The translations under genes and the position numbers were made by a program. A DNA stretch of 58,485 nucleotides from Bacteroidales bacterium. GTDB taxonomy: Bacteria; Bacteroidota; Bacteroidia; Bacteroidales; F082. The DNA lies in contig JAGCFU010000001.1 of assembly GCA_017649945.1 (NCBI GenBank), positions 1-58,485 of the forward strand, given 5' to 3'. This document shows, piece after piece, positions 9,294 through 23,776 of the stretch. Numbering within the stretch: the stretch's first letter is position 1; each line of letters opens with the position of its first letter. The notes below the pieces were generated by a model. That model searched no databases and was not told the DNA's origin. It worked only from the letters and a program-made list of their open reading frames with translations.

Positions 9294-12200
9294 ATGGAAC
9301 AACCCAAACAATTTGACAATATCAATAATCGAGTTATCGATGATCTGAAGCAGACATTGAGCAAAGGCTCAAAGGTTTCTATTGCTGCCGCATCGTTTTC
9401 TATTTACGCCTATGAAGCTCTGAAAAAGGAACTTGAAGATGTTGATGAACTGAGGTTTATCTTCACTTCACCTACATTTAATAAAACTGAGATTGGAAAG
9501 AAGGAAAAACGTGAGTTTTTTATTCCGAAACTTAACAGAGAGCGTAATCTTTACGGTTCGGAATATGAAATCCGTCTCAGAAATCAGCTGTCGCAAAAGG
9601 CTATAGCCCGTGAATGTGGTGAGTGGATTCGTAAAAAGGTGCGTTTCAAAACTATTGTAACTGATGGAAATGTATATACTCAAGCTACCATAAGAAATGA
9701 TAATGGCGAGCAGAGTTATATTCCTTTCAATGATTTTACTTCCAGTACGCTTGGTATTGAAAAAGGCGCTGATGTTTGTACTAACATCATTCGACTCAGT
9801 TTTCCGATGACAACTCAGTTTGTGTCGGATTTTAATAAAATGTGGCAGAATCAGGAACAGTTTAAAGATGTGACTGATGCTGTGCTGGAGAATATTGAGA
9901 ATGTTTACCGCGAGAACTCTCCAGAGTTTATCTATTTCGTGACACTCTACAATATTTTCAATGAATTCCTTGAGGATATCTCTGAAGATGTGCTTCCAAA
10001 TGAAGCAACTGGATTTAAGGATAGCCAAATTTGGAATAAGCTTTATGATTTTCAGAAAGATGCAGCACTGGCCATAATAAACAAACTGGAGAAATACAAC
10101 GGCTGCATACTTGCTGACAGTGTCGGTTTGGGAAAGACATTCACGGCACTGGCTGTGATAAAATATTACGAGACGAGAAATAAAAATGTTTTGGTACTTT
10201 GTCCTAAGAAGCTTTGCGACAACTGGATGACGTATCGAAACAACTACATCACAAATCCTATTGCAGCCGACCGTTTGAGCTATACAGTACTTTTCCACTC
10301 TGACCTTTCGCGTGATGGAGGCTCGTCAAACGGTGTTGATTTGGATAAAATAAACTGGGGCAATTTCGACCTTGTGGTGATTGATGAATCGCACAACTTC
10401 CGCAATGGTGGTAAGCTTACCAGAGATGATGAGGATGAAGATCCTCGTGAGAACCGTTATCTCCGCTTGATGAACCAGGTGATTCGTGCAGGAGTGAAAA
10501 CCAAGGTTCTGATGCTTTCAGCTACACCTGTCAACAACCGTTTCAACGATTTGAAGAACCAGCTGCAGCTGGCTTATGAGGGCGAAGCTGAGCGCATCGA
10601 CACTTTACTTAACACGAGTTCATCTATCGATGATATTTTCCGTAATGCGCAGAAAGCCTATAACCATTGGGCAAAACTGCCTAATGCCGAGCGTACTACC
10701 GACAGACTTCTCTCCATGCTGAGCTTTGATTTCTTTGAAGTGCTTGATTCTGTGACAATAGCCCGAAGCCGCAAGCATGTTGAGGCTTATTACAATACTG
10801 AAGCCGTTGGAAAATTCCCGAAAAGGCTTCAGCCGTTATCACGCCGTCCGTCGCTTACCGACCTTCCATCAGCAATAAATTATAATGAGATTTTTGCCCA
10901 GCTGCAAAAGCTTAATCTTGCAATTTACACGCCTTCCGCGTTTATTCTGCCCTCCAAAATCAAGGATTATGCACTTGATACCGAAACTCATGGGTCTGGA
11001 CTAACATTAGTCGGTCGTGAAATGGGTATTCGCCGATTGATGTGCATTTTGATGCTGAAGCGACTGGAAAGCTCCGTCAATTCGTTCCGACTTACTTTGG
11101 GTCGCTTGTTAAAGCTTATTGCAACGACTATAGATAAGATTGACAAGCATGAGATGTTTATCGATGTCGAAGATGTCGAAGGCTATGATTTGGATATCGA
11201 TGATTCGGAAAACGACGCTTTTATCGGCACAAAAAAGAACAAGATTGCTCTTGAAGATATCGACTATATAAGCTGGCGCCAGTATCTTGCAAAAGATAAG
11301 GAAGAACTTGAGCTTACACAGCTGATGCTCAATGATATAACTCCAGAACATGACAGTAAGCTTATCCAGTTAAAAGATGACCTTCGCGAAAAGTTCGCCC
11401 ATCCTATCAATGGCGACAATAAGAAAGTGTTAATCTTTACCGCTTTCTCCGATACAGCTGTTTATCTGTATGATAATCTGGCAAATACTATCAAACAGAA
11501 ATATGGTATGGATGTCGCTTTGGTAACTGGTGACGTGGAAGCTCGAAGCACTCTGAAACTTAAGGAAAGGCTTGACTTTAACAAAGTGCTGACGCTTTTT
11601 TCGCCAATTTCAAAAGAGAAAGCTTCGATATATCCAAATATAAATGAGGAAATTCAGGTGCTTATCGCGACCGACTGTATCTCTGAAGGCCAGAACCTGC
11701 AGGATTGCGACTATTTGATAAACTATGATATTCACTGGAATCCGGTTCGCATTATCCAGCGTTTCGGACGTATTGACCGTATCGGCTCAAAGAATGAGGC
11801 TATCCAACTGGTGAACTATTGGCCTGATATGACGCTTGACGAATACATCGACCTTAAGGGTAGAGTGGAGGCAAGGATGAAAGTTTCGGTGCTGACTTCC
11901 ACGGGAGACGATAATCCTATTTCTCCAGAGGAAAAAGGCGACCTTGAATATCGCAAAGCCCAGCTCAAAAAGCTTCAGGAAGAGGTGGTTGATATTGAGG
12001 AGATGAACAACGGCGTTTCCATCATGGACTTGGGATTAAACGAATTCCGTTTGGATTTGCTGGAGTATATGAAAACCCACGAAGATGTTGAGCATACGCC
12101 ATACGGGCTTCATGCTGTGGTGGAACACAATGAGTTCACCGAGCCGGGTGTGATATATGTGTTGAAAAACCGCAACAAAGGCGTGAATATCGACAAAAAG

Positions 12201-12542
12201 AACAGACTGCACCCATTCTATATTGTTTATGTCCGCAACGATGGTTCTGTCGTCATTAACCATCTGGCACCTAAAGAGTTGCTCGATAAGTTCCGCAGTT
12301 TGTGCAAAGGCAAGAATATGCCGCAAACAACTCTTTGCCATGCTTTCAACAAAGAGACCCGCGACGGGCAGAAAATGACGCAGTACTCGAAGCTGCTGGG
12401 CGATGCTATTGGGAGCATCATCAATGTTAAAGAGGAGAGCGATTTGGATTCATTTCTTGAAGGCGCACAGGGTTCGCTCTTTACCAAAGAAATAACAGGT
12501 CTCGACGATTTCGAGCTTATTTGTTTCCTCGTAGTAAAATAG
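9294..12542 (+). CDS. SNF2-like helicase with N-terminal PLD-like domain
   Basis: A 1082-residue superfamily 2 helicase. The first 210 residues resemble the phospholipase-D-like domain found in front of such helicases, but I see no HKD catalytic motif. The helicase core has Walker A ADSVGLGKT (about 274-282), DESH box VVIDESHNFRN (about 364), motif III MLSATPVNNR, and motifs V/VI VLIATDCISEGQNLQ and QRFGRIDRIGSK (about 800-830). The C-terminal 200 residues are unassigned. Such helicases are known neighbours of type III restriction genes and DUF4391 proteins. The next gene starts 7 bases later. A role as the island's DNA-translocating sensor or effector is inferred. Confidence 0.85.
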   Translation: MEQPKQFDNINNRVIDDLKQTLSKGSKVSIAAASFSIYAYEALKKELEDVDELRFIFTSPTFNKTEIGKKEKREFFIPKLNRERNLYGSEYEIRLRNQLSQKAIARECGEWIRKKVRFKTIVTDGNVYTQATIRNDNGEQSYIPFNDFTSSTLGIEKGADVCTNIIRLSFPMTTQFVSDFNKMWQNQEQFKDVTDAVLENIENVYRENSPEFIYFVTLYNIFNEFLEDISEDVLPNEATGFKDSQIWNKLYDFQKDAALAIINKLEKYNGCILADSVGLGKTFTALAVIKYYETRNKNVLVLCPKKLCDNWMTYRNNYITNPIAADRLSYTVLFHSDLSRDGGSSNGVDLDKINWGNFDLVVIDESHNFRNGGKLTRDDEDEDPRENRYLRLMNQVIRAGVKTKVLMLSATPVNNRFNDLKNQLQLAYEGEAERIDTLLNTSSSIDDIFRNAQKAYNHWAKLPNAERTTDRLLSMLSFDFFEVLDSVTIARSRKHVEAYYNTEAVGKFPKRLQPLSRRPSLTDLPSAINYNEIFAQLQKLNLAIYTPSAFILPSKIKDYALDTETHGSGLTLVGREMGIRRLMCILMLKRLESSVNSFRLTLGRLLKLIATTIDKIDKHEMFIDVEDVEGYDLDIDDSENDAFIGTKKNKIALEDIDYISWRQYLAKDKEELELTQLMLNDITPEHDSKLIQLKDDLREKFAHPINGDNKKVLIFTAFSDTAVYLYDNLANTIKQKYGMDVALVTGDVEARSTLKLKERLDFNKVLTLFSPISKEKASIYPNINEEIQVLIATDCISEGQNLQDCDYLINYDIHWNPVRIIQRFGRIDRIGSKNEAIQLVNYWPDMTLDEYIDLKGRVEARMKVSVLTSTGDDNPISPEEKGDLEYRKAQLKKLQEEVVDIEEMNNGVSIMDLGLNEFRLDLLEYMKTHEDVEHTPYGLHAVVEHNEFTEPGVIYVLKNRNKGVNIDKKNRLHPFYIVYVRNDGSVVINHLAPKELLDKFRSLCKGKNMPQTTLCHAFNKETRDGQKMTQYSKLLGDAIGSIINVKEESDLDSFLEGAQGSLFTKEITGLDDFELICFLVVK

Positions 12543-12549
12543 ACTGCCT

Positions 12550-13152
12550 ATGCTGGGACTTCCGAAATCTACCGAACTGTCACAAGCCCTTCCCAAGGCT
12601 CGCATCTATGCGAAGTTTGAACTGCATTCAACGCAAAAAGACCGCTTCGATGAGGATGTTTCGAGAATGACAATTGTGAATGTTATTTCGGAGCGCACAG
12701 TGCCGGCACTTCATGCAGGTGAAAAGGTTGAGTCGATATACGTGCTTGAGGTGCAGCTCAAAAAGAAAGACTACGACCTGAAAAACATACAGCTGCTGTC
12801 GAAACTGATACCTCAGAAATTGTTGTTTCTGTTGAGATATAATGATGAGACGCAGCTCGCCATATTCCACACCAAACTTTTGATGAGCGACTGGGGTGCG
12901 GAACCAGAGATAACGGTATCAGGCTTGGATTTGGATGAAGTGTGGGACAACATAGTAAAAACAGTTGGCACTATCGAAGTTGAGGAAGGCAACACTCTCG
13001 TTGAGCAGATTGCCATTGATGACGACAGAGCCAAACTCAAACGCCAGATAGAGCAGCTTGAAGAGAAAGCTAGAAAAGAAAAACAGCCCAGAAGGAAGTA
13101 TGAAATATATTTGGAAATTATAAAATTGAAAGAATTTTTACAAAATTCGTAG
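12550..13152 (+). CDS. DUF4391-family protein
   Basis: A 200-residue protein opening with the family-typical LGLPKSTELSQALPKARIYAKF. The central region (about 60-120) has alternating strands with IYVLEVQLKKKDYD and LLFLLRYNDETQLAIFHTKLL, and the C-terminal 40 residues form a charged coil (KRQIEQLEEKARKEK). Its biochemical function is unknown. DUF4391 proteins are recurrent companions of helicase and type III methyltransferase genes, exactly as here. The 7-base gap to the helicase indicates one transcript and probably a shared complex. The last 25 codons become AT-rich, in step with the following inserted module. Confidence 0.75.
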   Translation: MLGLPKSTELSQALPKARIYAKFELHSTQKDRFDEDVSRMTIVNVISERTVPALHAGEKVESIYVLEVQLKKKDYDLKNIQLLSKLIPQKLLFLLRYNDETQLAIFHTKLLMSDWGAEPEITVSGLDLDEVWDNIVKTVGTIEVEEGNTLVEQIAIDDDRAKLKRQIEQLEEKARKEKQPRRKYEIYLEIIKLKEFLQNS

Positions 13153-13178
13153 TTTTTTTACAAAAATCGACAAAATAT

Positions 13179-13210
13179 TTTGAATTGAATCAAATTTTGT
13201 ATTATTTTTG
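13179..13210 (+). promoter_or_regulatory. Internal promoter before the ATPase/RloB pair
   Basis: TTTG (13179-13182) and TATTTTTG (13203-13210) with a 20-base spacer sit in the 80-base gap after DUF4391. The 12-base palindrome CAAAATATTTTG (13171-13182) overlaps the -33 box and could be an operator. Confidence 0.65.
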
Positions 13211-13232
13211 CAAAAAATAAAATGTTAAAAAT

Positions 13233-14453
13233 ATGATTAGAGAATTTTGGGTCGAGAACTTCCTGTCAATTAAGGAACGGCAAACGTTGAACTTTGAAAC
13301 CAAATCAAACGAAGACGAATGGGCATCGGTTGATTTTGGAGGAGGAAAACGCATAAATAAGCTTGCTATTTTTTATGGAGCAAACGCATCTGGAAAGTCT
13401 AACATTCTTAAGGCTCTTGTTAATGTGTTTGAAATATTGTTTTATCCATTTAATAATAAATCAGAAAAGGTAAATTCGAAACGACCTTTTGTATTATGTG
13501 CTGATAAACCAACCCAAATGCATATTTCATTCTATGCCAACCATATCCGTTATGATTATAAAGTCTCTTATACATCAGAACATATTATTCAGGAAGTTTT
13601 GGAATGGTTCCCTAACGGTTCAAAATCGCTTTTCTATGAAAGAAATTTCATATCTGAAGACTCACAGGCAGCCATTAAATTTGGTCAAAGCTTGGGATTG
13701 TCAGCCAAGACAAAAGACATTTTCCTTCAAAACACATTTAATAATCACTCTGTGTTATCCTGTTTCGGCAAAAAATCATTTGAGGCTGATGCCAAGCCAA
13801 TTGCCAATTTGTATAATTGGATAGCTCGTTACATTCATCGACTGGATAATCCAGATTTCTCTCTTGATGATTTGCTTAAACAGGTGTTGGAGAATGAAAA
13901 CACAAAAAGATTTTTCATTCAAATGTTAGGAAAAGCTGATTTTAACATTGTTGACTTTCATGCTCATACTGCAAACGAGAATGATGAACAAACCAAAATA
14001 TTTTTTGACTGCAAAGCAGGAGATGCAATTTTTAGTCTAGGTTTGGACGAACAATCTCAGGGAACCAAGAAGTTTTTAAGCAACCTGTCAACGCTTTACT
14101 ATGCGATTTCAAATCATCATATTTATTTCATTGACGAAATAGACTCTGAATTACATGATGATTTGCTACTATATTTCTTGAACGTTTTTTTGATGAATTC
14201 AAAAGAATCGCAATTGATATTTACAAGCCAGGAGACCTCTTTGCTGAATGAAGATTTATTGAACACCCATCGTGATTTTGTCTTTTTTGCCGAGAAAAAC
14301 CGCGACGGTGCATATTCCGAATATACCCGTGCTGATGAATTTAGGCTTCACAAAAACCTTTCTTTATACAAATCGTATAGAAACGGCAGATTGGGAGCAA
14401 TTCCACAATTAGGTTCACCTTTATTATATTTGAAGAATGATGAAAAAGATTAA
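13233..14453 (+). CDS. AAA/ABC-type ATPase, RloA-like
   Basis: A 406-residue ATPase of the AAA_15/AAA_21 type seen in OLD, Gabija, PARIS and RloAB defence systems. It opens with IREFWVENFLSIKERQTLNF, followed by Walker A GANASGKS (residues 49-56), a signature-like QSQGTKKF (about 275), Walker B IYFIDEIDSELHDD (about 300-313), and a downstream FTSQETSLL switch region (about 330). Such proteins dimerise and gate a partner nuclease. The partner is the next gene, which starts inside this one (17-base overlap). An own promoter lies upstream. Assignment to RloA rather than another ATPase of this clan rests on the RloB partner. Confidence 0.8.
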   Translation: MIREFWVENFLSIKERQTLNFETKSNEDEWASVDFGGGKRINKLAIFYGANASGKSNILKALVNVFEILFYPFNNKSEKVNSKRPFVLCADKPTQMHISFYANHIRYDYKVSYTSEHIIQEVLEWFPNGSKSLFYERNFISEDSQAAIKFGQSLGLSAKTKDIFLQNTFNNHSVLSCFGKKSFEADAKPIANLYNWIARYIHRLDNPDFSLDDLLKQVLENENTKRFFIQMLGKADFNIVDFHAHTANENDEQTKIFFDCKAGDAIFSLGLDEQSQGTKKFLSNLSTLYYAISNHHIYFIDEIDSELHDDLLLYFLNVFLMNSKESQLIFTSQETSLLNEDLLNTHRDFVFFAEKNRDGAYSEYTRADEFRLHKNLSLYKSYRNGRLGAIPQLGSPLLYLKNDEKD

Positions 14454-15051
14454 GGATTCGATTATAGTAATTGGAGAATCAATTACGGAATACTATTATT
14501 TCAATTCGTTGAAAGATAAGTATAGGCAGCTTAATATCAAGCCTACATATCCAAAACATTCTACTGGACTGGATTATCTTGAACAGGAAATTGATAAAGC
14601 AGTAGATGCCGGCTATTCGTTGATTATCTGTGTCGTTGATATGGATAATAAAAAGAAAGGCAAGGAAAAACAAGAATATGAAAGTTTCAAACGGCGCATG
14701 GAAGGCGTTCAAACAATTAAGAAGTCCGATTTAAAATATGAGATTCGATTCATTGAGAATGAGCGTTGTTTGGAGGTGTTCTTCCTGTTTTATTTTGCCT
14801 ATACTTCTCGCTGCTTCCAAAACCAGCCTGAATTAATAGAGCAGTTGAATAAGAACTGCTATTATGAAAAAACTGAAAAGTTTTTCAGGACACATCCGCT
14901 TCATCAGTATTTTGAGGGAACTGGCGGCGACTTCAAGAAGGCATTGCGCAATGCAGCCAAATCAATGAAAGAAAAAGAGGAAACAGGAAGAGATTATACA
15001 TACTCTCAAATGGCAGAGCTGTTTGAGGCATTAGGAATTAAAGCAGAATAA
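14437..15051 (+). CDS. RloB-like TOPRIM protein
   Basis: A 204-residue protein of the RloB type. It opens with KDSIIVIGESITEYYYF, where Glu14 in GES matches the TOPRIM glutamate. The acidic strand IICVVDMDN (about 64-72) supplies the second metal site, and NERCLEVFFLFYF (about 108-120) is the typical RloB segment. TOPRIM partners of AAA ATPases act as nucleases in OLD, Gabija and PARIS, so nuclease activity released on phage sensing is plausible but not shown for RloB. rloA/rloB were first named as genes linked to type I restriction loci; here the pair sits inside a type III locus. Confidence 0.75.
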   Translation: MMKKIKDSIIVIGESITEYYYFNSLKDKYRQLNIKPTYPKHSTGLDYLEQEIDKAVDAGYSLIICVVDMDNKKKGKEKQEYESFKRRMEGVQTIKKSDLKYEIRFIENERCLEVFFLFYFAYTSRCFQNQPELIEQLNKNCYYEKTEKFFRTHPLHQYFEGTGGDFKKALRNAAKSMKEKEETGRDYTYSQMAELFEALGIKAE

Positions 15052-15068
15052 TAATACCAACAAAGTAA

Positions 15069-15710
15069 ATGAACAAAACAAAGTCTAGAAATACAGTAAT
15101 AATTACTATTTGCATTGCCTCGGCACTGATTTGCATAGCACTGACATTTTGGGGTAATTGGAAAAACAATGGTGTATTGACAACTGATGCTTTTATTGGT
15201 GTGATGGCAACATTTATTGGAATATGCGCAACTATCATTGTTGGTGTACAAATTGTCAATCACCTTGAAATACGAAATATACGAAAAAGCATAACAGCTA
15301 TTGAAGAAGAAAGAAATAGTTTGAATTATGAGAAGGAAGCCTTCTCCGTAGAGATGTATAATACCCGATTAAGTATAGGCAATGCATTGGCTTTACTGGC
15401 TCTTACAGCTCAAAAGAATAATGATTTTAACATAGAATTCACTTCATGGGTACATTCCATTATCATTGATGATTGGAACTCAATGAAAGGTTCTGCCTTG
15501 TTAAATCGTTATAAAAGGTTAATTGAATTGTCTAATATCCTTGTTCCTGTTTCTGATAAAGTCTTTTTAGAAGAAGCATATAAAGCACTGTCAGTTATAG
15601 TGGTGCCAAAAGAAATAGAACATTACAATGAAATTATGTCATTGCATTATAAACTATTGACTGATATTAAAAAGAGTATCCAAACGACACCAAACAGTAA
15701 CGATAATTAG
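15069..15710 (+). CDS. Two-TM coiled-coil protein of unknown function
   Basis: A 213-residue membrane protein. Hydrophobic segments at about residues 9-28 and 41-63 would form a hairpin, followed by a coiled coil (about 70-100) and a helical cytoplasmic tail. I do not recognise the family. It starts 17 bases after the RloB-like gene and ends 20 bases before the trypco2-like gene. Two-TM proteins with soluble helical tails are common as membrane effectors in bacterial conflict systems, which is the best guess here. Base composition is strongly AT-rich compared with the restriction genes, suggesting separate acquisition. Confidence 0.65.
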   Translation: MNKTKSRNTVIITICIASALICIALTFWGNWKNNGVLTTDAFIGVMATFIGICATIIVGVQIVNHLEIRNIRKSITAIEEERNSLNYEKEAFSVEMYNTRLSIGNALALLALTAQKNNDFNIEFTSWVHSIIIDDWNSMKGSALLNRYKRLIELSNILVPVSDKVFLEEAYKALSVIVVPKEIEHYNEIMSLHYKLLTDIKKSIQTTPNSNDN

Positions 15711-15730
15711 TAACAAATATATATCTGATT

Positions 15731-16063
15731 ATGGACTTAAAAGAATTCACGAAAGAGACTCTTGTACAAATTGTACACGGTGTTGAAGAAGCTAATAATG
15801 AATTATCGGAAAAACATGCACATGTTACATCTCATGCGATGAAGAATTCTGCTGGAGGGGTTTTGCTTGATGATAGATATACTAATGCGATTGAAGTTGA
15901 ATTTGATGTCGCTGTAACTGCTACAGAAACAGATGGTACAAAAGGTGGTGGAGGAATTAGAGTCGCCCAGATATTATTTGGTGGAATAGAGGCAAGTAAT
16001 AGCACAGAAAATCAATCTATAAGTCGGGTTAAATTTTCTATCCCATTGGTTTTGGAAAAATAG
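15731..16063 (+). CDS. Trypco2-like domain protein
   Basis: A 110-residue single-domain protein. It has an N-terminal helix (LKEFTKETLVQIVHGVEEAN), then strands centred on VEFDVAVTATE, a glycine-rich GIRVAQILFGG, and a closing strand SRVKFSIPLVL. This layout resembles the trypco2 domain (trypsin-co-occurring domain 2), described by comparative genomics as part of NTP-dependent conflict systems. No trypsin-like protease is nearby. The neighbour is a two-TM coiled-coil gene, so the two may form an effector and control pair. The family call is from memory of the pattern and is moderate only. Confidence 0.5.
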   Translation: MDLKEFTKETLVQIVHGVEEANNELSEKHAHVTSHAMKNSAGGVLLDDRYTNAIEVEFDVAVTATETDGTKGGGGIRVAQILFGGIEASNSTENQSISRVKFSIPLVLEK

Positions 16064-16118
16064 AAGATTATTTCGATACATTTATATAACACGAATTTTG
16101 TATACAACAAATAAAAGC

Positions 16119-18002
16119 ATGAATAAACTCAACCTCCAAACAACTAACATTGTGGACGAAAACATAAAGAAGATAGCCGAACTCTTCCCCAACTGCCTCA
16201 CCGAGCGCCTCGACGAGAACGGGAAGCCAGAAGTGGCGATTGACTTCGACCAGCTGCGGCAGGAGCTCTCGAAGGACATCGTGGAAGGCCCCGAGGAACG
16301 CTACCAGTTCACCTGGCCCGACAAGCGCAACGCCATCCGCCTTGCCAACGCGCCGACCACCGACACGCTGCGTCCCTGCCGCGAGGAAAGCGTCGATTTC
16401 GACAACACGCAGAACCTCTACATTGAGGGCGACAACCTGCAGGTGCTGAAACTGTTGCGCGAGAACTACCTCGGCAAGGTGAAGATGATTTACATTGACC
16501 CGCCTTACAACACGGGCAACGATTTTGTGTATAACGACGACTTCGCCCAAAGTGCCGGCGAGTATATCCATAACAGCGGGCAGGAGGACGAGGAAGGCAA
16601 CCGCCTCGTGGCCAACACCGAGAGCAACGGCCGCTTCCACACCGACTGGCTCAACATGATTTACCCCCGCCTAAAAGTGGCAAAGGATTTGTTGAGCGAG
16701 GATGGGGTGATTTTTATTTCGATTGATGACAATGAGGTAGAGAATTTAAAGAAATTATGTAATGAAGTGTTTGGTGAACAAAACTTTGAGGGACATATTC
16801 ATTGGAGAAGAAGACATAATCAACCGAATGATAAGACGAAAATGATAGGTATTGTAGCGGAGCATATAATTGTATATGCAAAAAACTCACAGTATTTAAA
16901 AAGTGTTGGCGTTGGTAAGTTGGATGTTACGGCCTCATTTTCGAATCCAGATAATGACCCTAAAGGACCATGGGCTAGTAAACCGTGGAAAGTTGGTTCG
17001 GATCAATCAGGTAGTGCATACAAAATAGTTACTCCAACAGGAAAAATTTTGGATGGAGAATGGATGGGAGAAGAAAAGACTTATTTACAACACCTTGAGG
17101 AAGGACGAATTTATTTTCCTAAAGGTGGTGATGGTTTCCCAAGAAAAAAGTATTATGAATTTGAACGAACAGAGGAAGGCCAGTGTGCTACAAACTGGTG
17201 GACTCATGAACAATTTGGTCATAATCAAGGTGCCAATGACTACGCCACATCTTTATTTGGTAAAAAGAATATTTTTAGCAACCCCAAGCCTGTGGAATTG
17301 ATTAGAGGATTAATTAAAGTGGGAAATGTTAAATGTGAAGATGTAGTTCTTGATTTCTTTTCTGGTTCTGCAACGGTTGCAGATACAATCATGCAACTTA
17401 ATGCCGAAGATGGAGGCAACCGCAAGTTCATCATGGTGCAACTGCCAGAAGCAACCGATGAGAAAAGCGAAGCATACAAGGCTGGCTATAAGGACATTTG
17501 CGAAATCGGCAAAGAACGTATCCGTCGAGCCGGCAAAAAAATCGTTGAAGAACAAAAGGCAAAGCAAGCGGATTTGTTCAGTGGCGAACAGAAACCGTTG
17601 GACATAGGTTTCCGTGTGCTCAAACTTGACAGTTCCAACATGCAGGATGTGTATTACTCGCCCGAGCAGTTCAACGAGAACCTGCTCTTCGAGGACAACA
17701 TCAAGCACGACCGCACCGACGAGGATCTGCTTTTCCAAGCCATGATAGAGCTCGGCATCGAGCTTTCAGCCAAGATAGAGCAACGCGAAATCGCGGGCAA
17801 GACCGTCTGGAGCGTCGCCGACAACTACCTCATGGCCTGCTTCGATAAGGACGTGAACGAAACCACCATCACCGAAATCGCCCGCCAGCATCCCTACTAC
17901 TTCGTCATGCGCGACAGCAGCCTCGCCACGGACAACGTAGCGGACAACTTTGAGCAGATTTGGGAGGAGTATAGTAAAGACACAATTAGAAAGATTTTCT
18001 AG
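16119..18002 (+). CDS. mod: Type III restriction-modification methyltransferase (Mod)
   Basis: An N6-adenine DNA methyltransferase of the beta class, with DPPYNTGNDF (residues 127-136) before the SAM motif DFFSGSAT (412-419) and the target recognition region in between. It sets the sequence specificity for both methylation and cleavage. The ATG at 16119 gives the usual MNKLNLQT opening; an in-frame ATG at 16098 is less likely. The ends (16119 to about 16670 and 17400-17980) are rich in GCC, CGC and AAC codons, while the centre is AT-rich, indicating replacement of the recognition domain. The next gene starts 2 bases after the stop. Confidence 0.93.
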   Translation: MNKLNLQTTNIVDENIKKIAELFPNCLTERLDENGKPEVAIDFDQLRQELSKDIVEGPEERYQFTWPDKRNAIRLANAPTTDTLRPCREESVDFDNTQNLYIEGDNLQVLKLLRENYLGKVKMIYIDPPYNTGNDFVYNDDFAQSAGEYIHNSGQEDEEGNRLVANTESNGRFHTDWLNMIYPRLKVAKDLLSEDGVIFISIDDNEVENLKKLCNEVFGEQNFEGHIHWRRRHNQPNDKTKMIGIVAEHIIVYAKNSQYLKSVGVGKLDVTASFSNPDNDPKGPWASKPWKVGSDQSGSAYKIVTPTGKILDGEWMGEEKTYLQHLEEGRIYFPKGGDGFPRKKYYEFERTEEGQCATNWWTHEQFGHNQGANDYATSLFGKKNIFSNPKPVELIRGLIKVGNVKCEDVVLDFFSGSATVADTIMQLNAEDGGNRKFIMVQLPEATDEKSEAYKAGYKDICEIGKERIRRAGKKIVEEQKAKQADLFSGEQKPLDIGFRVLKLDSSNMQDVYYSPEQFNENLLFEDNIKHDRTDEDLLFQAMIELGIELSAKIEQREIAGKTVWSVADNYLMACFDKDVNETTITEIARQHPYYFVMRDSSLATDNVADNFEQIWEEYSKDTIRKIF

Positions 18003-18004
18003 TC

Positions 18005-18805
18005 ATGGAGTATTTCTCAAATATTGAAAAAGGAGCATTGGTTAAGCTGTTTAACAGAGATGGCTATGTGTTGGACTTTTCAACATCGGATTTTGACGTC
18101 TTTACTATGAACAGCGTAGGCGTTGCTTTGTGCGAAAAGTATAAGTTATCCAAAGGGAGGTCATTAAACGCCTATATTTCAGAGGCAACGGAAAAGGAGT
18201 CAGCAAAACTTCTTATTGACTTGTTTGATTATTATGAATTAAATGGCTTCATGGATAAACCATTTGAGAAAGAGAACTACTATTCAGCATATCAACGGTG
18301 TAAACCAATTGTAGAACGAGTTCGTTCAATGTTGAACAATTCAATGATTCCGGTAGATAATCTCAAGACTGTATTTTCCAATGATTATATCTCATCTCAA
18401 TTAGATATGATGCTTAATATGCAAGGGGAGAATCCGACAGAGGCAATTGGAAAAGCAAAAGAGCTCATAGAGAACTGTTGTAAAACGATTTTAGAAGATA
18501 AAGGAGTTGAAATTAATAACAAATGGGATGTTGGTAATTTAGTGGATGAAACAATGAAGTTGTTAGAAATCACTCCCAAGCATATTCCTGATACAGCAAA
18601 AGAAGCAAAAGCCATAAAAGCATTATTACAAGAGTTGAAGGGAATTGCATCTCAAATAGCGATTATTAGGAATGCTTATGGTAGCGGACATGGGAAAAGT
18701 GCATCATATAAAGGCTTGCAAGAGCGACATGCAAAACTAGCAATTGGAAGTAGTGTGACTTTAGTAAACTTCTTATGGGATTCGTTTGAAAGAAAAAGTA
18801 ATTGA
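18005..18805 (+). CDS. Abortive infection protein with C-terminal HEPN-type domain
   Basis: A 266-residue protein. The N-terminal part (1-130, with DFSTSDFDVFTMNSVG) resembles AbiJ-type N-terminal domains. The C-terminal part (about 135-262) matches the abortive infection C-terminus (Abi_C) family, a HEPN-like helical fold. IRNAYGSGH (221-229) holds Arg222 and His229 in the R-x6-H spacing of HEPN ribonucleases. Predicted action is RNA cleavage that stops growth of infected cells. It lies between Mod (2-base gap) and the TPR gene (15 bases), so it is co-translated with the restriction subunits. It is AT-rich, unlike them. Confidence 0.8.
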   Translation: MEYFSNIEKGALVKLFNRDGYVLDFSTSDFDVFTMNSVGVALCEKYKLSKGRSLNAYISEATEKESAKLLIDLFDYYELNGFMDKPFEKENYYSAYQRCKPIVERVRSMLNNSMIPVDNLKTVFSNDYISSQLDMMLNMQGENPTEAIGKAKELIENCCKTILEDKGVEINNKWDVGNLVDETMKLLEITPKHIPDTAKEAKAIKALLQELKGIASQIAIIRNAYGSGHGKSASYKGLQERHAKLAIGSSVTLVNFLWDSFERKSN

Positions 18806-18820
18806 TAAATGGTATATATT

Positions 18821-19960
18821 ATGAAAACTAAACATTTAATAACAATTATTATGATTTTGGTTTGTCTGAATGTATTTGGACAGCAAAAGAATACTGTGCC
18901 CATGACGGTACAGTCTCAAAAGACTGAGGTTCAAGTTTTGGAGGAAACTATATTGCAGTTGCAAGCGGAAAACCAAGTTATGCAAAAGCAAATGGAAAGT
19001 ATTGAAAAAGATGTGGAATTGTATCGTGCTGATTTGCGAGCGATAGCATCTGATTTAACAGGAAAGATGTCTCATTGGCTGACCGTTTTAAGCATTTTAA
19101 TAGGCGCGATTGTTACGATATTAGGTGCAGGATTGGGGATTGTTGTGCCTTTGATATTGAACAATAAAAGTGAAAAAAGAATAAACGAAAAGATTGATGA
19201 GATAAAGCAAGAAGTGGCTTTTGCGAAAACATATAAAATGCAAGCAGAATCTTCTGAGGAAAAAGCCAATGAATATTCTATCACTGCTGAAGAAGCAACC
19301 AAAGAAATAGATAATATAATTAAAATCAATCAGCTGTATATTAAAGCATCAGCTGAAAAAGATAAAATAAAAGCAATTGGATATATTAATCAAGCTATCA
19401 AACTTGATCCTGATGACGCTTTTGCGTATTACTTCCGTGCTAGCATGAAAGATGACTTGGGAGACAAAGAAGGAGCTGTTGCCGATTACGACAAAGCTAT
19501 ATTGCTCAATCCAGATTATGCTGAAGCATATAATAATCGTGGCTTTACAAAGGAGGATTTGGGAAATAAGATGGGAGCTCTTGCTGACTATAACAAGGCT
19601 ATTTTGATTAGGGATGATTATGAGGTTGCTTATAACAATCGTGGTTATTTAAAAAGCAGTCTAGGTGATATAAATGGAGCTTTTGAGGACTTCAATATAG
19701 CTATATCATTAAAGCCAGATTACCCAAATCCATATAATCATCGTGGTATGTTGAAATTAAAGATAGGAGATTTAGACGGAGCGATTGATGATATTAATAG
19801 GGCAATATTATTGGATCCAAACTATGCTGATGCATATTACAGCCGTGCACAGTATTATAGAAAACTTGCAGAAACGGAAGAAGACCCAACAAAGAAAGCA
19901 GAATTGATTGCTAAAGCTGAAGCTGATGAAGAAAAAGCTAAATCATTAGGAGACAAATAA
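18821..19960 (+). CDS. Membrane-anchored TPR protein
   Basis: With the ATG at 18821 the 379-residue product has a signal-peptide-like start (MKTKHLITIIMILVCLNVFG), a coiled coil (about 35-75), a strong membrane segment (about 86-113), a second coil, and five or six tetratricopeptide repeats (about 180-350, e.g. AYNNRGFTKEDLGNKMGALA). If the signal is cleaved, the coil would be periplasmic and the TPR domain cytoplasmic. TPR domains bind peptides or partner proteins, so it may tether the HEPN or Res proteins to the membrane; this is inference. Its stop overlaps the Res start by one base (TAATG). Confidence 0.75.
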   Translation: MKTKHLITIIMILVCLNVFGQQKNTVPMTVQSQKTEVQVLEETILQLQAENQVMQKQMESIEKDVELYRADLRAIASDLTGKMSHWLTVLSILIGAIVTILGAGLGIVVPLILNNKSEKRINEKIDEIKQEVAFAKTYKMQAESSEEKANEYSITAEEATKEIDNIIKINQLYIKASAEKDKIKAIGYINQAIKLDPDDAFAYYFRASMKDDLGDKEGAVADYDKAILLNPDYAEAYNNRGFTKEDLGNKMGALADYNKAILIRDDYEVAYNNRGYLKSSLGDINGAFEDFNIAISLKPDYPNPYNHRGMLKLKIGDLDGAIDDINRAILLDPNYADAYYSRAQYYRKLAETEEDPTKKAELIAKAEADEEKAKSLGDK

Positions 19961-22900
19961 TGAAATTCAAATTCAAAATACAGCAATATCAGACCGATGC
20001 GGTGGAAAGCACGGTGAGCGTGTTCGCAGGGCAACCCTCGAAGACCAACGCGCAGTACCGCCGCGACTTGGGCAAGCAGAAACAGCAGCTGAAAGCTGAG
20101 TTTGAGGAGGAGTATGTGGGTTACCGCAATGCCGATGTGGAACTCAACACCAGTCAGTTGTTGGAAAACATCCACCATCAGCAAGTGCAGAACGATATCC
20201 CGCCGAGCAAGTCCTTAGCGGCCACCAACGGTCTCGGTGCATGTTCCTTGGATGTGGAGATGGAGACGGGCACGGGCAAAACCTACGTCTATATCAAGAC
20301 CATGTTCGAGATGAACAAACGCTTCGGCTGGTCGAAGTTCATCGTGGTGGTGCCCAGCATCGCCATCCGTGAAGGTGTCTATAAGAGTTTCACCATGCTG
20401 GAAGAGCATTTCATGGAACTCTACGGCAAGAAAGCCCGTTATTTCATCTACAACAGCGCCAACCTCACCCAAATCGACTCGTTCAGCAGCGATGCCAGCA
20501 TCAACGTGATGATTATCAACGTGCAGGCGTTCAACACCTCGTTCAAGGAAGGTGCGGCCAATAAGGAGGCGCGTATCATCTACTCCAAACGCGACGATTT
20601 CCAAAGCCGTCGTCCCATCGATGTGATTGCCGCCAACCGTCCTATCATCATCATGGACGAGCCGCAGAAGATGGAGGGCGAAGCCACGCAAAAGGCCTTG
20701 CGCAACTTCAAGCCGCTGTTTGTGCTCAACTATTCCGCCACCCACAAGACCTCGCACAACTGTATCTATGCGCTAGATGCCTACGATGCCTACAAACAAC
20801 GCTTGGTGAAGAAAATCCAAGTGAAGGGCATCACGGTGCAGAACTTGTTGGGCACTCAGAGCTACATCTATTTCGACAGCATTATCCTTTCGAAGAACCA
20901 TGCCCCCATAGTCAAGTTGGAAATCGAGGTGAAAGGCGCCGCTGCCACCCGCCGACAACTTTGCAAGTTCGAGCAAGGCGATTCGCTGTTTGCCATTTCG
21001 CAACTTCCTGCCTACAAGGATTTTGTCATCACGGAAATCAACCCACTGACGAATACTGTCTATTTCCAAAACGGCAAACAACTGCGTCAAGGCGAGGTGA
21101 TGGGCGATGTCAGCGAAAAAGCCATCCAACTGATTCAGATTCGGGAAACCATCAAGTCGCATTTTGAGAAGGAGAGAGCCTTGTTCCAGCAAGGCATCAA
21201 GACCCTTTCGCTGTTCTTCATCGACGAGGTGGCCAACTACAAAAGCTATGATACGGACGGAAACGAAGTGCAAGGTCCGCTGTGGAAGATGTTTGAGGAC
21301 GAATACAACCGTTATCTGAACGAGAACTTGACTCTGTTTGAGGACGATTATCAGAGATACCTGCGTCGTTTCGCCGCCGCGCAAGTACACAACGGCTATT
21401 TTTCCATCGACAAGAAAGGCCATTCAATTGATAGTGAGGTAAAACGCGGCAAGGATACATCAGATGACATCTCTGCTTACGACCTGATTCTGAAGAACAA
21501 GGAACGCCTGTTGAGTTTCGACGAACCGACACGATTCATATTCTCCCACTCCGCCTTGCGCGAAGGTTGGGACAACCCCAACGTGTTCCAAATCTGCACG
21601 TTGCGCCACGCCAACTCCAGCACTGCCAAACGACAGGAAGTGGGTCGTGGTTTACGCATCTGCGTTGATAACGACGGCAACCGCATGGACAAGGAACGCT
21701 TGGGTGATGCCGTACACGATACCAACAAACTGACCGTCATCGCCAACGAGAACTACAGTTCTTTCGTTGATGCTTTGCAGAAAGAGACCAAAGACACCCT
21801 TCGTGAACGTCCGACACAAGCTACGGTCGATTACTTCAAGGGCGTTACGGTCAAAGTGGGTGATGAGAAACACACCATCTCGGAGCAGGAGGCTGCCAGC
21901 ATCGTCACTTATCTCTATGAGAATGACTATATAGATGAGAAGGGCAACATCCTGCAAGACTATCACACTGATATGGATAAGGGTAATTTAGCCCCGATGA
22001 GCAAGAAGTTGCAGCCCATCGAAGAGCAGGTGCATAAACTCATCCAGAGCATCTTTGATCCCGCCGCTTTGGAAGACATGGTGGAAGATGCCAACGGCAA
22101 GGCAGAAGTGGTGAACGAGCGTTTGAACGACAATGCCGAGAAGAAGGAATTCAAAGCCTTGTGGAACGAAATCAACCACCGCTATGTCTATACGGTGCAT
22201 TACGACAGCGAAGAACTGATTCAGAAAGCCATTGCCGCCATCAACAGCGAGTTGAGTGTCACGCAGTTGAAGTATGTAGTGACCACAGGCACGCAAGGCA
22301 CTGACGACTTGGACTTCACTGGCGAACAGAGCACTCGGACAAAGGAGATGCGTGATGTGTCAACCAGCAATGTGCCTTACGATTTGGTGGGCGACATCGC
22401 CAAAGCAGCCACGCTAACCCGCCGCACGGTCACCCGCATTTTGAAAGGGATTCAGCGGTCGAAGCTGTACATGTTCAAGAACAATCCCGAAGAGTTCATC
22501 CGCAAGGTAAGCCATATCATCCGCGAGCAGAAAGCCACGATGATTGTTGAGCATATCAGCTATAATCGAACAGAAAACCATTACGATTCTGATATCTTTA
22601 CCAAGGAAAAGAGTCGCCAGACTGTTGATAAGGCATATTCTTCAAAGAAACATATTCTTGATTACGTATTTGCTGATAGCCAAGGCGAGCGTACTTTTGC
22701 TGAGGATTTAGATAAGGCAGAGGAAGTATGTGTCTATGCCAAGTTGCCGAGGTCGTTCCAGATTCCTACGCCAGTTGGTAATTATGCACCTGATTGGGCT
22801 ATTGCTTTTAACGATAACATGGGAATAAAACATGTTTTCTTTATAGCTGAAACAAAGGGAAGCATGGATTCTATGCAGTTGAAAGGCGTGGAGTTGGCGA

Positions 22901-23010
22901 AAATCGAATGTGCCAAAAAGCTGTTCAATAATCTCTCAACCTCAAATGTCCGCTATCATGAGGTGAATAGCTACCACATGATGTTGGATGTTATGAAATC
23001 AATAGATTAA
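19960..23010 (+). CDS. res: Type III restriction endonuclease helicase-nuclease subunit (Res)
   Basis: Cleaves DNA after ATP-driven movement when Mod finds unmethylated sites. The 1016 residues have Walker A METGTGKT (about 101-108), DEPQ box IIMDEPQKMEG (about 231-241), motif III NYSATHK, and motifs V/VI HSALREGWDNPN and QEVGRGLR (about 529-565). The C-terminal PD-(D/E)xK nuclease shows PDWAI (about 944-948) and ETKGS (about 965-969), all apparently intact. The length is typical. Sequence is GC-rich up to about 22550 and more AT-rich over the nuclease part, so that end may have been exchanged. It is the last gene of the tightly packed mod operon. Confidence 0.93.
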   Translation: MKFKFKIQQYQTDAVESTVSVFAGQPSKTNAQYRRDLGKQKQQLKAEFEEEYVGYRNADVELNTSQLLENIHHQQVQNDIPPSKSLAATNGLGACSLDVEMETGTGKTYVYIKTMFEMNKRFGWSKFIVVVPSIAIREGVYKSFTMLEEHFMELYGKKARYFIYNSANLTQIDSFSSDASINVMIINVQAFNTSFKEGAANKEARIIYSKRDDFQSRRPIDVIAANRPIIIMDEPQKMEGEATQKALRNFKPLFVLNYSATHKTSHNCIYALDAYDAYKQRLVKKIQVKGITVQNLLGTQSYIYFDSIILSKNHAPIVKLEIEVKGAAATRRQLCKFEQGDSLFAISQLPAYKDFVITEINPLTNTVYFQNGKQLRQGEVMGDVSEKAIQLIQIRETIKSHFEKERALFQQGIKTLSLFFIDEVANYKSYDTDGNEVQGPLWKMFEDEYNRYLNENLTLFEDDYQRYLRRFAAAQVHNGYFSIDKKGHSIDSEVKRGKDTSDDISAYDLILKNKERLLSFDEPTRFIFSHSALREGWDNPNVFQICTLRHANSSTAKRQEVGRGLRICVDNDGNRMDKERLGDAVHDTNKLTVIANENYSSFVDALQKETKDTLRERPTQATVDYFKGVTVKVGDEKHTISEQEAASIVTYLYENDYIDEKGNILQDYHTDMDKGNLAPMSKKLQPIEEQVHKLIQSIFDPAALEDMVEDANGKAEVVNERLNDNAEKKEFKALWNEINHRYVYTVHYDSEELIQKAIAAINSELSVTQLKYVVTTGTQGTDDLDFTGEQSTRTKEMRDVSTSNVPYDLVGDIAKAATLTRRTVTRILKGIQRSKLYMFKNNPEEFIRKVSHIIREQKATMIVEHISYNRTENHYDSDIFTKEKSRQTVDKAYSSKKHILDYVFADSQGERTFAEDLDKAEEVCVYAKLPRSFQIPTPVGNYAPDWAIAFNDNMGIKHVFFIAETKGSMDSMQLKGVELAKIECAKKLFNNLSTSNVRYHEVNSYHMMLDVMKSID

Positions 23011-23120: not shown

Positions 23121-23155
23121 GTTTATAGTAGTTTAATAGTTTAAAGGGGGTGATT

Positions 23156-23776
23156 ATGTTACCAGCAAACGCTAAAATCGTAAAATGTCCGTTTTGCGGC
23201 GAGCAAAAAGAGCTGCTGAACCTCGCGTCGGGCAATACTTGCGGAGCCAGACATTGGTCCGACCAGAAAATGATTGCCCCGATGCTGCCTCAGGTTTCCC
23301 CGGTGCAGAAATGCCCTGCATGTGGAAAGTATTATCTGGAATATAACCAGACTTACGAGGAAGGCGACGGCTGGTCGTCGGAACGCGGCGAGCTCTCATA
23401 TCAGCAATGGAAAGAGGCCTACGCGCAGCTTCAGTCGGATAAAAGCATCACAAAAAATGATTTGCAGATTGTCAGACATCAGCTGATTCAGGCTTTTAAT
23501 GATGATTATTATCGATACGATGCCGATGAAGCGCCTGCTGAAGAAGAGACCTATTTCGTGAATGTTATCCATGAATATATCGACGCCTGCTCATGGAATA
23601 AAAAGAACCTCTTGTTTAAGGCCGAGCTTTATCGTGAAGCGGGCGAGATGAGCAAATGCGCCGAAGTGCTGTCGAAAATATCCCTTGAGAAGCTTCAAGA
23701 CTATGAAGCGAAGATTTACAAGGAGATAGAATCACGTATGAAAAACGGTGATAAAAAGGTTTTCAGAATAAACTGA
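23156..23776 (+). CDS. Zinc-ribbon hypothetical protein
   Basis: A 206-residue cytoplasmic protein with two CPxC knuckles: KCPFCGEQ (residues 10-17) and KCPACGKYY (about 52-60), which together would bind one zinc ion. The rest is helical and acidic, including a TPR-like C-terminal pair of helices. I do not recognise a named family. The ATG at 23156 is preceded by AAAGGGGG, a good ribosome site; a GTG at 23150 is possible but lies within that site. It converges on parE after 40 bases. It probably marks return to the ancestral chromosome after the island. Confidence 0.7.
   Translation: MLPANAKIVKCPFCGEQKELLNLASGNTCGARHWSDQKMIAPMLPQVSPVQKCPACGKYYLEYNQTYEEGDGWSSERGELSYQQWKEAYAQLQSDKSITKNDLQIVRHQLIQAFNDDYYRYDADEAPAEEETYFVNVIHEYIDACSWNKKNLLFKAELYREAGEMSKCAEVLSKISLEKLQDYEAKIYKEIESRMKNGDKKVFRIN

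What the first reader, a model, noticed from the sequence alone, without database searches (positions are those of the whole stretch)
9294..23010. Composite defence island built on a type III restriction frame with nested effector modules
Seen: PLD/SNF2-type helicase and DUF4391 genes, then an ATPase + RloB-like pair, a two-TM + trypco2-like pair, Mod, a HEPN Abi protein, a membrane TPR protein, then Res, all on one strand with mostly tiny gaps. Known: Mod/Res form type III restriction; ATPase-TOPRIM pairs and HEPN Abi proteins are anti-phage effectors. Inference: helicase, DUF4391, Mod and Res form a core, and the two gaps (DUF4391-Mod, Mod-Res) are cargo slots for back-up systems that act if restriction fails. 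The full combination is not one I know as a described system.
Basis: partly seen in the sequence, partly recalled or inferred. Interest (0 to 1): 0.82.

Follow-up and report, generated by a model that had tools for sequence, protein, structure and literature searches.

The report
Restriction operon with swappable defence slots
A bacterial DNA-cutting defence operon keeps the same four core genes in many phyla, while other suspected anti-virus genes are swapped in and out of the gaps between them, so it seems to work as a carrier for second-line defences; such nesting is known in other restriction systems but I found no description of this one.

Summary
Ten same-strand genes (9294-23010) encode an SNF2 helicase (HEL), DUF4391, an AbiL-like ATPase+RloB pair, a two-TM protein, a weakly trypco2-like protein, type III Mod, an AbiJ-type HEPN protein, a membrane TPR protein and type III Res.

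Of 80 HEL loci (best of 581), 61 carry Mod and Res downstream, all 61 in the order HEL-(DUF4391)-Mod-Res, 57 with DUF4391 detected. Of those 57, 20 have no codirectional cargo; the rest hold it in three gaps, not two (9, 29, 24 loci). Cargo is AT-richer than the core in 36 of 36 loci, and 37 of 74 cargo proteins recur in another locus's slots (flank samples average 1.4 and 3.5). Three E. coli strains with ~95-97% identical HEL and Res have in the same gap no codirectional gene, one ATP-binding protein gene, or a nuclease+DUF2130 pair.

Against: the N-terminal PLD region lacks the HKD motif; two loci of the window's class (HEL 54-55%) have a permuted order; the Mod-Res slot also occurs in type III loci without this helicase; PADLOC enrichment was not shown (5/15 vs 4/15). 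"Back-up if restriction fails" is untested. New variant of a known kind.

The parts
9294..12542 (+). HEL: SNF2-family helicase, 1082 aa, with an N-terminal PLD-like region lacking the HKD motif; first core gene
   Evidence: PADLOC C3a139 E 4.7e-124; Helicase_C, SNF2-rel_dom, ResIII; A6 alignment of 42 shows no conserved His in the first ~260 residues
12550..13152 (+). DUF4391 protein, 200 aa, second core gene; C-terminal third coiled-coil-like
   Evidence: PF14335 E 6e-32; profile A5 matches in the PDB only two designed sequences named sc-apCC, over profile positions 137-202
13153..16118 (+). Slot 1 (DUF4391-Mod gap) with four cargo genes, GC 0.34 against 0.42-0.49 for the core genes
13233..14453 (+). 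Cargo: AAA_21 ATPase (AbiLi-like)
   Evidence: PF13304 4.9e-20; AbiLi 7e-65
14437..15051 (+). Cargo: RloB-like protein (AbiLii)
   Evidence: PF13707 3.6e-23; AbiLii 2.6e-11; an RloB relative (27% identity) after an ATP-binding protein gene on a Phocaeicola plasmid
15069..15710 (+). Cargo: 213-aa protein with two predicted TM helices, no confident family
15731..16063 (+). Cargo: 110-aa protein, weak trypco2 similarity (below cut-off)
   Evidence: PF19631 E 0.0056, 17.3 bits of 24.2
16098..18002 (+). Mod: type III methyltransferase, third core gene (start likely 16119)
   Evidence: MTase_III 1e-228; aligns to Mod 6k0w (shown, DPPY and FxGS kept) and EcoP15I Mod 4zcf (table)
18003..19959 (+). Slot 2 (Mod-Res gap) with two cargo genes, GC 0.35
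18005..18805 (+). Cargo: AbiJ-type HEPN protein (Abi_C) with RNAYGSGHG motif
   Evidence: PF14355 1.6e-24; AbiJ 3.4e-16; motif found in all six slot copies
18809..19960 (+). Cargo: membrane protein with TPR repeats
   Evidence: TPR_1 1.3e-26; hydrophobic segments at 2-20 and 95-113
19960..23010 (+). Res: type III restriction helicase-nuclease, fourth core gene
   Evidence: REase_III 3.2e-290; RE_endonuc 9.1e-32; aligns to EcoP15I Res 4zcf in the helicase and PD..ETK endonuclease regions

Best explanation
This is a type III restriction-modification operon of a widespread kind: SNF2 helicase, DUF4391, Mod, Res. Its inter-gene junctions act as acceptor sites for exchangeable, largely self-contained anti-phage or toxin-type modules. 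Shown here: the four core genes recur as a unit and can be found with no cargo; in the compared pairs cargo is inserted at the gene junctions; it is nearly always in the same direction and differs between closely related cores; some cargo families appear in different slots. Inferred: cargo comes with foreign DNA and is exchanged by homologous recombination through the conserved flanking core genes (no recombinase was seen among the cargo families listed, which were a capped list); it is expressed from the operon; Mod/Res cuts unmodified DNA first, while the nested ATPase+RloB and HEPN modules (and perhaps the TM/trypco2 and TPR proteins) respond to other infection cues and arrest the cell. Helicase and DUF4391 probably work with Mod/Res; DUF4391 co-varies best with Res, but their step is unknown.
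For: Order kept in 61 of 61 loci (of 80) that have HEL, Mod and Res downstream (57 with DUF4391 detected, 4 without); of 59 loci with >=6 kb after HEL, 58 have both. Anchored on DUF4391 instead, all 20 hits of >=149 bits (window excluded) have HEL beside them (two, L004 and L005, only a 52-residue piece) and 16 of 20 have Mod within the ~1.5 kb held. No codirectional cargo in 20 of 57, all gaps <=50 nt in 13; empty cores also on E. coli, Methylotuvimicrobium, Listeria and Enterococcus plasmids. Occupancy 9/29/24 of 57; slot ORFs >=100 aa: 69 codirectional, 4 opposite. Junctions: L116 versus empty L117, homology stops 3 nt past the mod stop and resumes at the cargo stop; in L111 cargo starts with the same 11 letters that start res in empty L114. 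E. coli CFT073, 0H26 and H5: HEL 94.8-96.5% and Res 95.1-96.1% identical, slot 1 with no codirectional gene, a 900-aa ATP-binding protein, or nuclease+DUF2130. Among 25 (not independent) pairs with HEL and Res >=80%, cargo (>=100 aa) family sets are the same in 1, different in 11, one side empty in 12, both empty in 1. 37 of 74 cargo proteins share a family with another locus's slots, against mean 1.4 (max 7) for upstream and 3.5 (max 9) for downstream samples, 0 of 500 each. 5 of 15 multi-member families occur in more than one slot; cargo GC is below core GC in 36 of 36 loci. Core genes co-vary (Mantel 0 of 200 for all six pairs; DUF4391-Res rho 0.71).
Against: PADLOC hit rate did not differ between 15 random cargo (5) and 15 random upstream proteins (4); ten of those 15 cargo proteins had no hit, so 'defence' is unproven for most. 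The order is not fixed everywhere: L144 (Mod-ORF-Res-ORF-HEL-DUF4391) and L145 (Mod-ORFs-Res-Mod-HEL-DUF4391), with HEL 54-55% identical and so no further away than some of the 80, are permuted; L146 and L149 have HEL with no Mod detected nearby; L106 lacks Mod. Core genes are not strictly co-inherited: HEL 80-87% with DUF4391/Mod/Res only 22-44% identical (L062 versus L064, L061, L126, window). Some gap ORFs are short, opposite or in long gaps and may be debris; seven of the 20 cargo-free loci have at least one gap over 50 nt. Starts were taken as the first possible codon, which inflates overlaps. No recombination mechanism was demonstrated.
Confidence: 0.75

Rival explanations
1. Guarded restriction (PrrC-like). 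Cargo proteins are held inactive by contact with Mod, Res or the helicase, and are released when a phage blocks restriction; slots exist because binding to the RM complex is needed.
For: PrrC in EcoPrrI works this way (passages of PMC3710099 and PMC12707154); the 2013 HEPN paper proposes it for HEPN genes in RM operons and notes that AbiJ proteins without N-terminal domains are more frequent there. Cargo is close to its neighbours: of 134 cargo junctions 58 overlap and 49 are within 0-50 nt (first-possible starts). A 39% relative of the HEPN lies between HsdR and HsdS of a type I RM.
Against: Cargo kinds are unrelated to each other, so one shared contact is unlikely. An RloB pair and two Abi_C proteins lie on plasmids with no RM gene in the 5-6 kb flanks viewed (1 of 3 RloB and 2 of 16 Abi_C plasmid records opened). 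Cargo sits in three different gaps. No interaction test was possible.
Confidence: 0.25
2. Ordinary defence island: unrelated defence genes piled up beside each other with no special slots.
For: Upstream flanks also carry PADLOC-like proteins (4 of 15 sampled; tally); transposases, WYL regulators and other defence genes lie near several relatives.
Against: Core order in 61 of 61 of the scan, empty and filled versions, junction-precise insertion in compared pairs, 69:4 strand bias, and recurrence of cargo families far above flanks.
Confidence: 0.08
3. The ten genes are one composite system in which all parts act together.
For: All on one strand with small gaps.
Against: L126, with HEL 93% identical, shares with the window's cargo only the HEPN family; cores without cargo are common; relatives of cargo genes occur elsewhere.
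Confidence: 0.04
4. Addiction: the nested toxin-like genes stabilise the operon or its mobile element rather than fight phages.
For: Cargo includes YoeB- and ParE-type toxin and Phd-type antitoxin matches; 112 plasmid records hold a HEL relative.
Against: More of the cargo named in the (capped) tables is Abi, Fic, RhuM, AAA or nuclease type than classical toxin-antitoxin pairs; the window has housekeeping neighbours.
Confidence: 0.12

Closest known systems
Type III RM with an extra helicase-like ATPase 5' of mod (Eco86II, BspHIV; PMC8259958, 2021, passages read)
   Same: A conserved SF2-type helicase gene, without an endonuclease motif, immediately before mod and res, reported in more than 500 genomes; not needed for methylation and no peptides seen in the partly purified enzyme
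   Different: The passages shown mention neither DUF4391 (not searched for within that paper) nor cargo. Whether it is the same helicase family was not settled: E. coli NCTC86 was not among the 60 of 68 E. coli records listed
Defence modules embedded in RM and BREX loci ('guilt by embedding'): DarTG2 between hsdS and hsdR (PMC12255303, passages); nested effectors in BREX loci (PMC12839542, passages); Payne et al. preprint (title seen in a reference list only)
   Same: Defence genes placed between the core genes of a modification-based system; the hsdS-hsdR site is called a potential recombination hotspot
   Different: Here the host is a type III RM with HEL and DUF4391 and three internal slots; occupancy, swapping and junctions are measured
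HEPN genes in RM operons (PMC3710099, passages)
   Same: AbiJ-type HEPN beside restriction genes, Fic/Doc and RhuM companions of PrrC/RloC-like genes, and a proposed back-up role
   Different: The passages concern RM operons in general; those shown give no slot structure for type III
AbiL (AbiLi/AbiLii) and ATPase + RloB-type pairs; PARIS (PADLOC names; biology recalled)
   Same: ATPase followed by an RloB-family partner, as in slot 1
   Different: Nested in a type III operon; RloB only 27% identical to the three plasmid relatives
DISARM (DrmD helicase)
   Same: HEL shares SNF2 motor similarity with DrmD
   Different: 142 bits against a cut-off of 610, and no DUF1998 among the ten proteins

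Membership tests
Type III restriction-modification | Mod: aminomethyltransferase of the MTase_III family with catalytic motifs | tested here: met
   MTase_III 1e-228; aligned to 6k0w Mod, DPPY and FxGS kept; EcoP15I Mod also matched, 7.3e-63
Type III restriction-modification | Res: SF2 helicase plus PD-(D/E)xK endonuclease in the same operon as mod | tested here: met
   REase_III 3.2e-290, RE_endonuc 9.1e-32; EcoP15I Res alignment; separated from mod by slot 2
Type III restriction-modification | Sequence-specific methylation and ATP-dependent cleavage | not testable with these tools
   needs methylome and cleavage assays
Embedded defence module (guilt by embedding) | Core system exists both without and with the inserted genes, at the same place | tested here: met
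   20 of 57 without, 37 of 57 with; E. coli CFT073/0H26/H5
Embedded defence module (guilt by embedding) | Inserted genes are enriched for defence over neighbours | tested here: inconclusive
   family recurrence strongly above flanks, but PADLOC hits 5/15 versus 4/15
PrrC-like RM guard | Effector silenced by the RM complex and freed by anti-restriction | not testable with these tools
   no interaction or infection data
AbiJ-type HEPN | Abi_C domain with R-x(4-6)-H motif | tested here: met
   PF14355 1.6e-24; RNAYGSGH, all six slot copies
AbiL / ATPase+RloB | AAA_21 ATPase followed by RloB-family partner | tested here: met
DISARM | DrmD at equivalog level plus DrmB (DUF1998) | tested here: not met
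   NF038317 142 bits of 610; no DUF1998
HKD/phospholipase D nuclease (N-terminus of HEL) | HxK(x)4D catalytic motif | tested here: not met
   no conserved His in 42 relatives; the fold was not tested, structure prediction was off
Trypco2 (110-aa cargo) | Pfam gathering score | tested here: not met
   17.3 bits of 24.2

The most novel reading that the evidence does not exclude
The type III core is a general docking platform: Mod, Res, the helicase and DUF4391 form a surveillance complex whose failure releases whatever effector is plugged into its three junctions, drawing on a cargo pool shared with type I RM. That would be a modular guard system in which sensor and effector evolve separately.
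Probability: 0.18. Interest if true: 0.82.

Novelty: new variant of a known kind. Interest (0 to 1): 0.55.

Why it matters
It turns a single-window hunch into a measured pattern: in this type III operon, junctions between core genes are exchange sites for second-line modules, with unfilled and differently filled versions at about 95-97% core identity inside one species. That gives ready natural comparisons for testing whether nested effectors guard restriction or merely ride along, and unnamed slot genes (ten of 15 sampled had no PADLOC match) worth testing as new anti-phage genes. An Abi_C HEPN relative, beside a gene related to PDB 3lmm, inside a type I RM (one locus, L143) hints at a cargo pool shared by type I and type III.

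Tried and rejected
Rejected: DISARM membership; HKD nuclease activity of HEL; 'one composite system' (cargo-free cores, L126); the idea that slots are private to the HEL/DUF4391 core (among 15 type III loci with no such HEL in the fetched stretch, Mod->Res order had ORFs of 294 aa or more in the gap in 5 of 8, a 98-aa ORF in one and nothing in two; Res->Mod order had only 129- and 133-aa ORFs in 2 of 7. L153 has another SNF2-like helicase, 81 bits, before mod; L157, L159 and L162 are short contigs, so a HEL beyond their ends is not excluded).

Led nowhere: structure prediction for DUF4391 and the HEL N-terminus; PDB sequence look-up for the HEL N-terminus (none), the HEPN (none) and DUF4391 (only designed coiled coils); HEPN contexts in the window's class were few (4 of 395 genomes, the window's included) and two of them (L141, L142) uninformative; promoter and terminator scan not far above shuffles (48 versus mean 35.6, sd 6.3; 18 versus 14.3, sd 4.4). 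Paper searches for a described version: DUF4391 (1 paper, listing only), 'between mod and res' + 'type III restriction' (0), 'genetically embedded within prokaryotic' (3, listing only), 'intervening genes / mod and res' (17, 15 listed). bioRxiv is not held as such.

Rows dropped before counts: 19 of 80 loci lacking Mod or Res (18 have 5.1 kb or less after HEL; L106 has 10 kb); the 4 of 61 without detected DUF4391 were left out of slot percentages; ORFs under 60 aa, and under 100 aa for the recurrence, pair and GC tests; Mod-labelled ORFs are not counted as cargo (L107 and L079 have two mod-like ORFs; several mods are in two ORFs); window cargo left out of the recurrence count and of the 15-protein draw; of seven class relatives of HEL at >=41% identity six were fetched (G503 not); of Res hits without HEL, G504 and G190 (at contig ends) were not fetched.

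Full report
WHAT IS THERE. GC separates them into blocks: HEL 0.42, DUF4391 0.43, slot 1 0.34, Mod 0.47, slot 2 0.35, Res 0.49, rest of the window 0.46. Neighbours are housekeeping genes (sigma factor, YidC, shikimate kinase, an RNA-methyltransferase-like gene, YjeF/Carb_kinase, a gyrase-B-type subunit) and an HTH + HipA pair. The source genome is a draft of 1.98 Mb in 92 contigs, 84% complete.

CATALYTIC STATE. Mod keeps DPPY and FxGS motifs in alignment with Mod 6k0w and also matches EcoP15I Mod. Res keeps helicase motifs and the PD...ETK endonuclease motif in alignment with EcoP15I Res. HEL keeps Walker A, DESH and QRFGRxDR residues among the invariant columns of an 11-sequence alignment, but its N-terminal region has no conserved histidine in 42 sequences, so the HKD motif is absent. 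The HEPN protein has RNAYGSGHG; its five slot relatives keep the motif.

Plasmid records gave 112 HEL relatives (40 listed). Six were opened: four are HEL-DUF4391-Mod-Res with no cargo (E. coli, Listeria, Methylotuvimicrobium, Enterococcus; the second gene is called 'hypothetical protein' in Listeria and Enterococcus but scores as DUF4391, 66-67 bits; the Listeria mod is annotated in two ORFs), one has nuclease+DUF2130 in slot 1 (Enterobacter), and one has a 900-aa ATP-binding-domain protein in slot 1 and AAA+DUF4276 in slot 2 (Aeromonas). Of the 80, 61 have HEL, Mod and Res on one strand, all in that order, 57 with DUF4391 detected between HEL and Mod. Of the other 19, 18 have 5.1 kb or less after HEL; with at least 6 kb after HEL, 58 of 59 have both Mod and Res. 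Anchoring instead on DUF4391 in 395 genomes of the phylum (24 over the cut-off), the 20 strongest hits (>=149 bits, window excluded) all have HEL adjacent, two of them only a 52-residue piece, and 16 have Mod in the ~1.5 kb held; of nine weaker loci (L019-L027) none has HEL and three have Mod.

SLOTS. In the 57 loci, slot 0 (HEL-DUF4391), slot 1 (DUF4391-Mod) and slot 2 (Mod-Res) are occupied in 9, 29 and 24; 20 have no codirectional ORF of 60 aa or more in any slot and 13 have all gaps of 50 nt or less. Slot ORFs of 100 aa or more are codirectional in 69 and opposite in 4. Of 134 cargo junctions 58 overlap and 49 more lie within 50 nt, with starts taken as the first possible codon. Thirteen pairs were aligned at the DNA level. 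In the clearest unfilled-versus-filled ones homology stops and resumes at gene ends: L116 versus L117, 3 nt past the mod stop and at the cargo stop; L098 versus L131 at the DUF4391-Mod junction. In L111 the cargo ATG and the next letters (11 in all) are those that start res in the empty L114, and res restarts at the cargo's end.

TURNOVER. The nearest relative, L126 (HEL 93% protein identity), shares no slot-1 cargo with the window and only the HEPN family in slot 2. Among 25 pairs (not independent) with HEL and Res both at least 80% identical, one has the same cargo set, 11 differ, in 12 one side has none, in one neither has any. In E. coli, CFT073, 0H26 and H5 have HEL 94.8-96.5% and Res 95.1-96.1% identical; slot 1 holds no codirectional gene (586 nt with one opposite 96-aa ORF), a 900-aa ATP-binding-domain protein, or nuclease+DUF2130, and Mod differs (57% between CFT073 and H5), with DNA homology interrupted inside mod. 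A fourth E. coli, NCTC11023, has a distant core (HEL 44%) without cargo. The nuclease+DUF2130 pair is also in the Enterobacter plasmid (87% and 98%) and the 900-aa protein in Aeromonas (87%). HEL matches were found in 68 of 5,426 E. coli genomes, 10 of them over at least 80% of the query. Cargo is AT-richer than the core in 36 of 36 loci with cargo of 100 aa or more (mean -7.2 points).

WHAT THE CARGO IS. 86 cargo proteins (80 from the loci, 6 from the window) fall into 58 clusters; 15 have more than one member and 5 of these 15 are seen in more than one slot. The window's HEPN family is in slot 2 of the window, L071 and L126 and slot 0 of L076, L080 and L087. Pfam names in the tallies (21 of 21 and 25 of 43 families shown): Abi_C, Fic, RhuM, YhcG/DUF1016, AAA_21, RloB, Schlafen AlbA_2, 23S IVP, YoeB, ParE, GmrSD, PDDEXK_3, DUF4238, DUF4143 and others. 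PADLOC tallies list PDC-S05, PDC-S04, PDC-S23, SoFic, AbiJ and AriA (25 of 106 and 25 of 207 families shown), against 63 families for 86 length-matched upstream ORFs; these count redundant models, not proteins. Recurrence across loci is 37 of 74 against a mean of 1.4 (upstream pool of 341, not length-matched) and 3.5 (downstream pool of 120), 0 of 500 samples each; part of this may reflect shared ancestry of close loci. Against the defence reading: a random draw of 15 cargo and 15 upstream proteins of at least 150 aa gave 5 and 4 PADLOC hits. I take the cargo as recurrent and, where named, largely toxin/Abi-like, with defence enrichment over flanks unproven.

BEYOND THIS CORE. In the window's class, 22 of 395 genomes (window's included) have a HEL match at E <= 1e-40. 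Of six loci fetched with HEL at 41-55% identity, L147 and L148 (45%) have the standard order; L144 (55%) is Mod-539 aa-Res-762 aa-HEL-DUF4391 and L145 (54%) Mod-244 aa-411 aa-Res-Mod-HEL-DUF4391; L146 (44%) and L149 (41%, short contig) show no Mod. Res relatives with no such HEL in the fetched stretch (15 loci) show the Mod-Res gap filled by ORFs of 294 aa or more in 5 of 8 Mod->Res loci and only by 129- and 133-aa ORFs in 2 of 7 Res->Mod loci. A HEPN relative (39%) lies between HsdR and HsdS, together with a relative of PDB 3lmm (AlbA/RecG-like by recall), in a type I RM with HsdR, HsdS and HsdM in L143. An ATP-binding protein + RloB pair (27% RloB identity) and two Abi_C proteins lie on plasmids with no RM genes in the flanks viewed.

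MECHANISM. Shown: recurrent core, insertion at junctions, swapping, family sharing between slots. Inferred: exchange by homologous recombination through flanking core genes; coupled expression; Mod/Res as first line and cargo as second line. Guarding of restriction by cargo is possible, has a precedent in PrrC, and is not tested. DUF4391 co-varies best with Res (rho 0.71) and HEL least with Mod (0.26), which fits a DUF4391-Mod-Res unit with a more loosely inherited helicase.

KNOWN OR NEW. Nesting of defence genes in RM and BREX operons is established (passages of PMC12255303, PMC12839542, PMC3710099), and a helicase gene 5' of type III mod was reported in 2021 (PMC8259958, passages). I found no description of DUF4391 as part of it, of three slots, or of type III cargo exchange in the searches listed under Tried and rejected; the embedding preprint could not be read. 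New variant of a known kind.

Noticed in passing
L143 (G610:C21:1-14000): Type I RM (HsdR, HsdS, HsdM by PDB matches) with a 3lmm-like gene and an Abi_C HEPN gene between HsdR and HsdS: similar cargo to the type III slots.
   Followed up: partly
L144 and L145: Core order permuted: Mod-cargo-Res, then a further ORF (in L145 a second Mod-like one), then HEL-DUF4391.
   Followed up: no
L146 and L149: HEL relatives (44% and 41%) with no Mod or Res detected next to them; L146 has 1203-aa and 661-aa ORFs downstream, perhaps another system.
   Followed up: no
L062 versus L064, L061, L126 and window: HEL 80-87% identical while DUF4391, Mod and Res are only 22-44% identical, as if helicase and the rest were exchanged as blocks.
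   Followed up: partly
L106: HEL, DUF4391 and Res kept but no Mod detected, with opposite-strand ORFs between.
   Followed up: no
L169 (E. coli 0H26) 19751-22944: mod is split by an IS30 element while res and the slot-1 gene remain.
   Followed up: no
L107 and L079: L107 has two mod-like genes in tandem; L079 has a 100-aa res-like ORF between two mod-like ORFs.
   Followed up: no
window 5490-7111: HTH + HipA-like toxin-antitoxin pair 2.2 kb upstream of the island.
   Followed up: no
window 23150-23776: 208-aa ORF with no Pfam match (E <= 0.001) 139 nt after res, same strand.
   Followed up: no
L055 19988-23280 and L170 16925-20217: ATP-dependent nuclease + DUF2130 pair shared by Enterobacter and E. 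coli slot 1 (87% and 98% identical); a candidate two-gene module.
   Followed up: partly
L081 22796-23245 and L068 22943-23284: RloB relatives (44-49% identity to the window's) lie on the other strand downstream of res in two relatives whose slots lack RloB.
   Followed up: no
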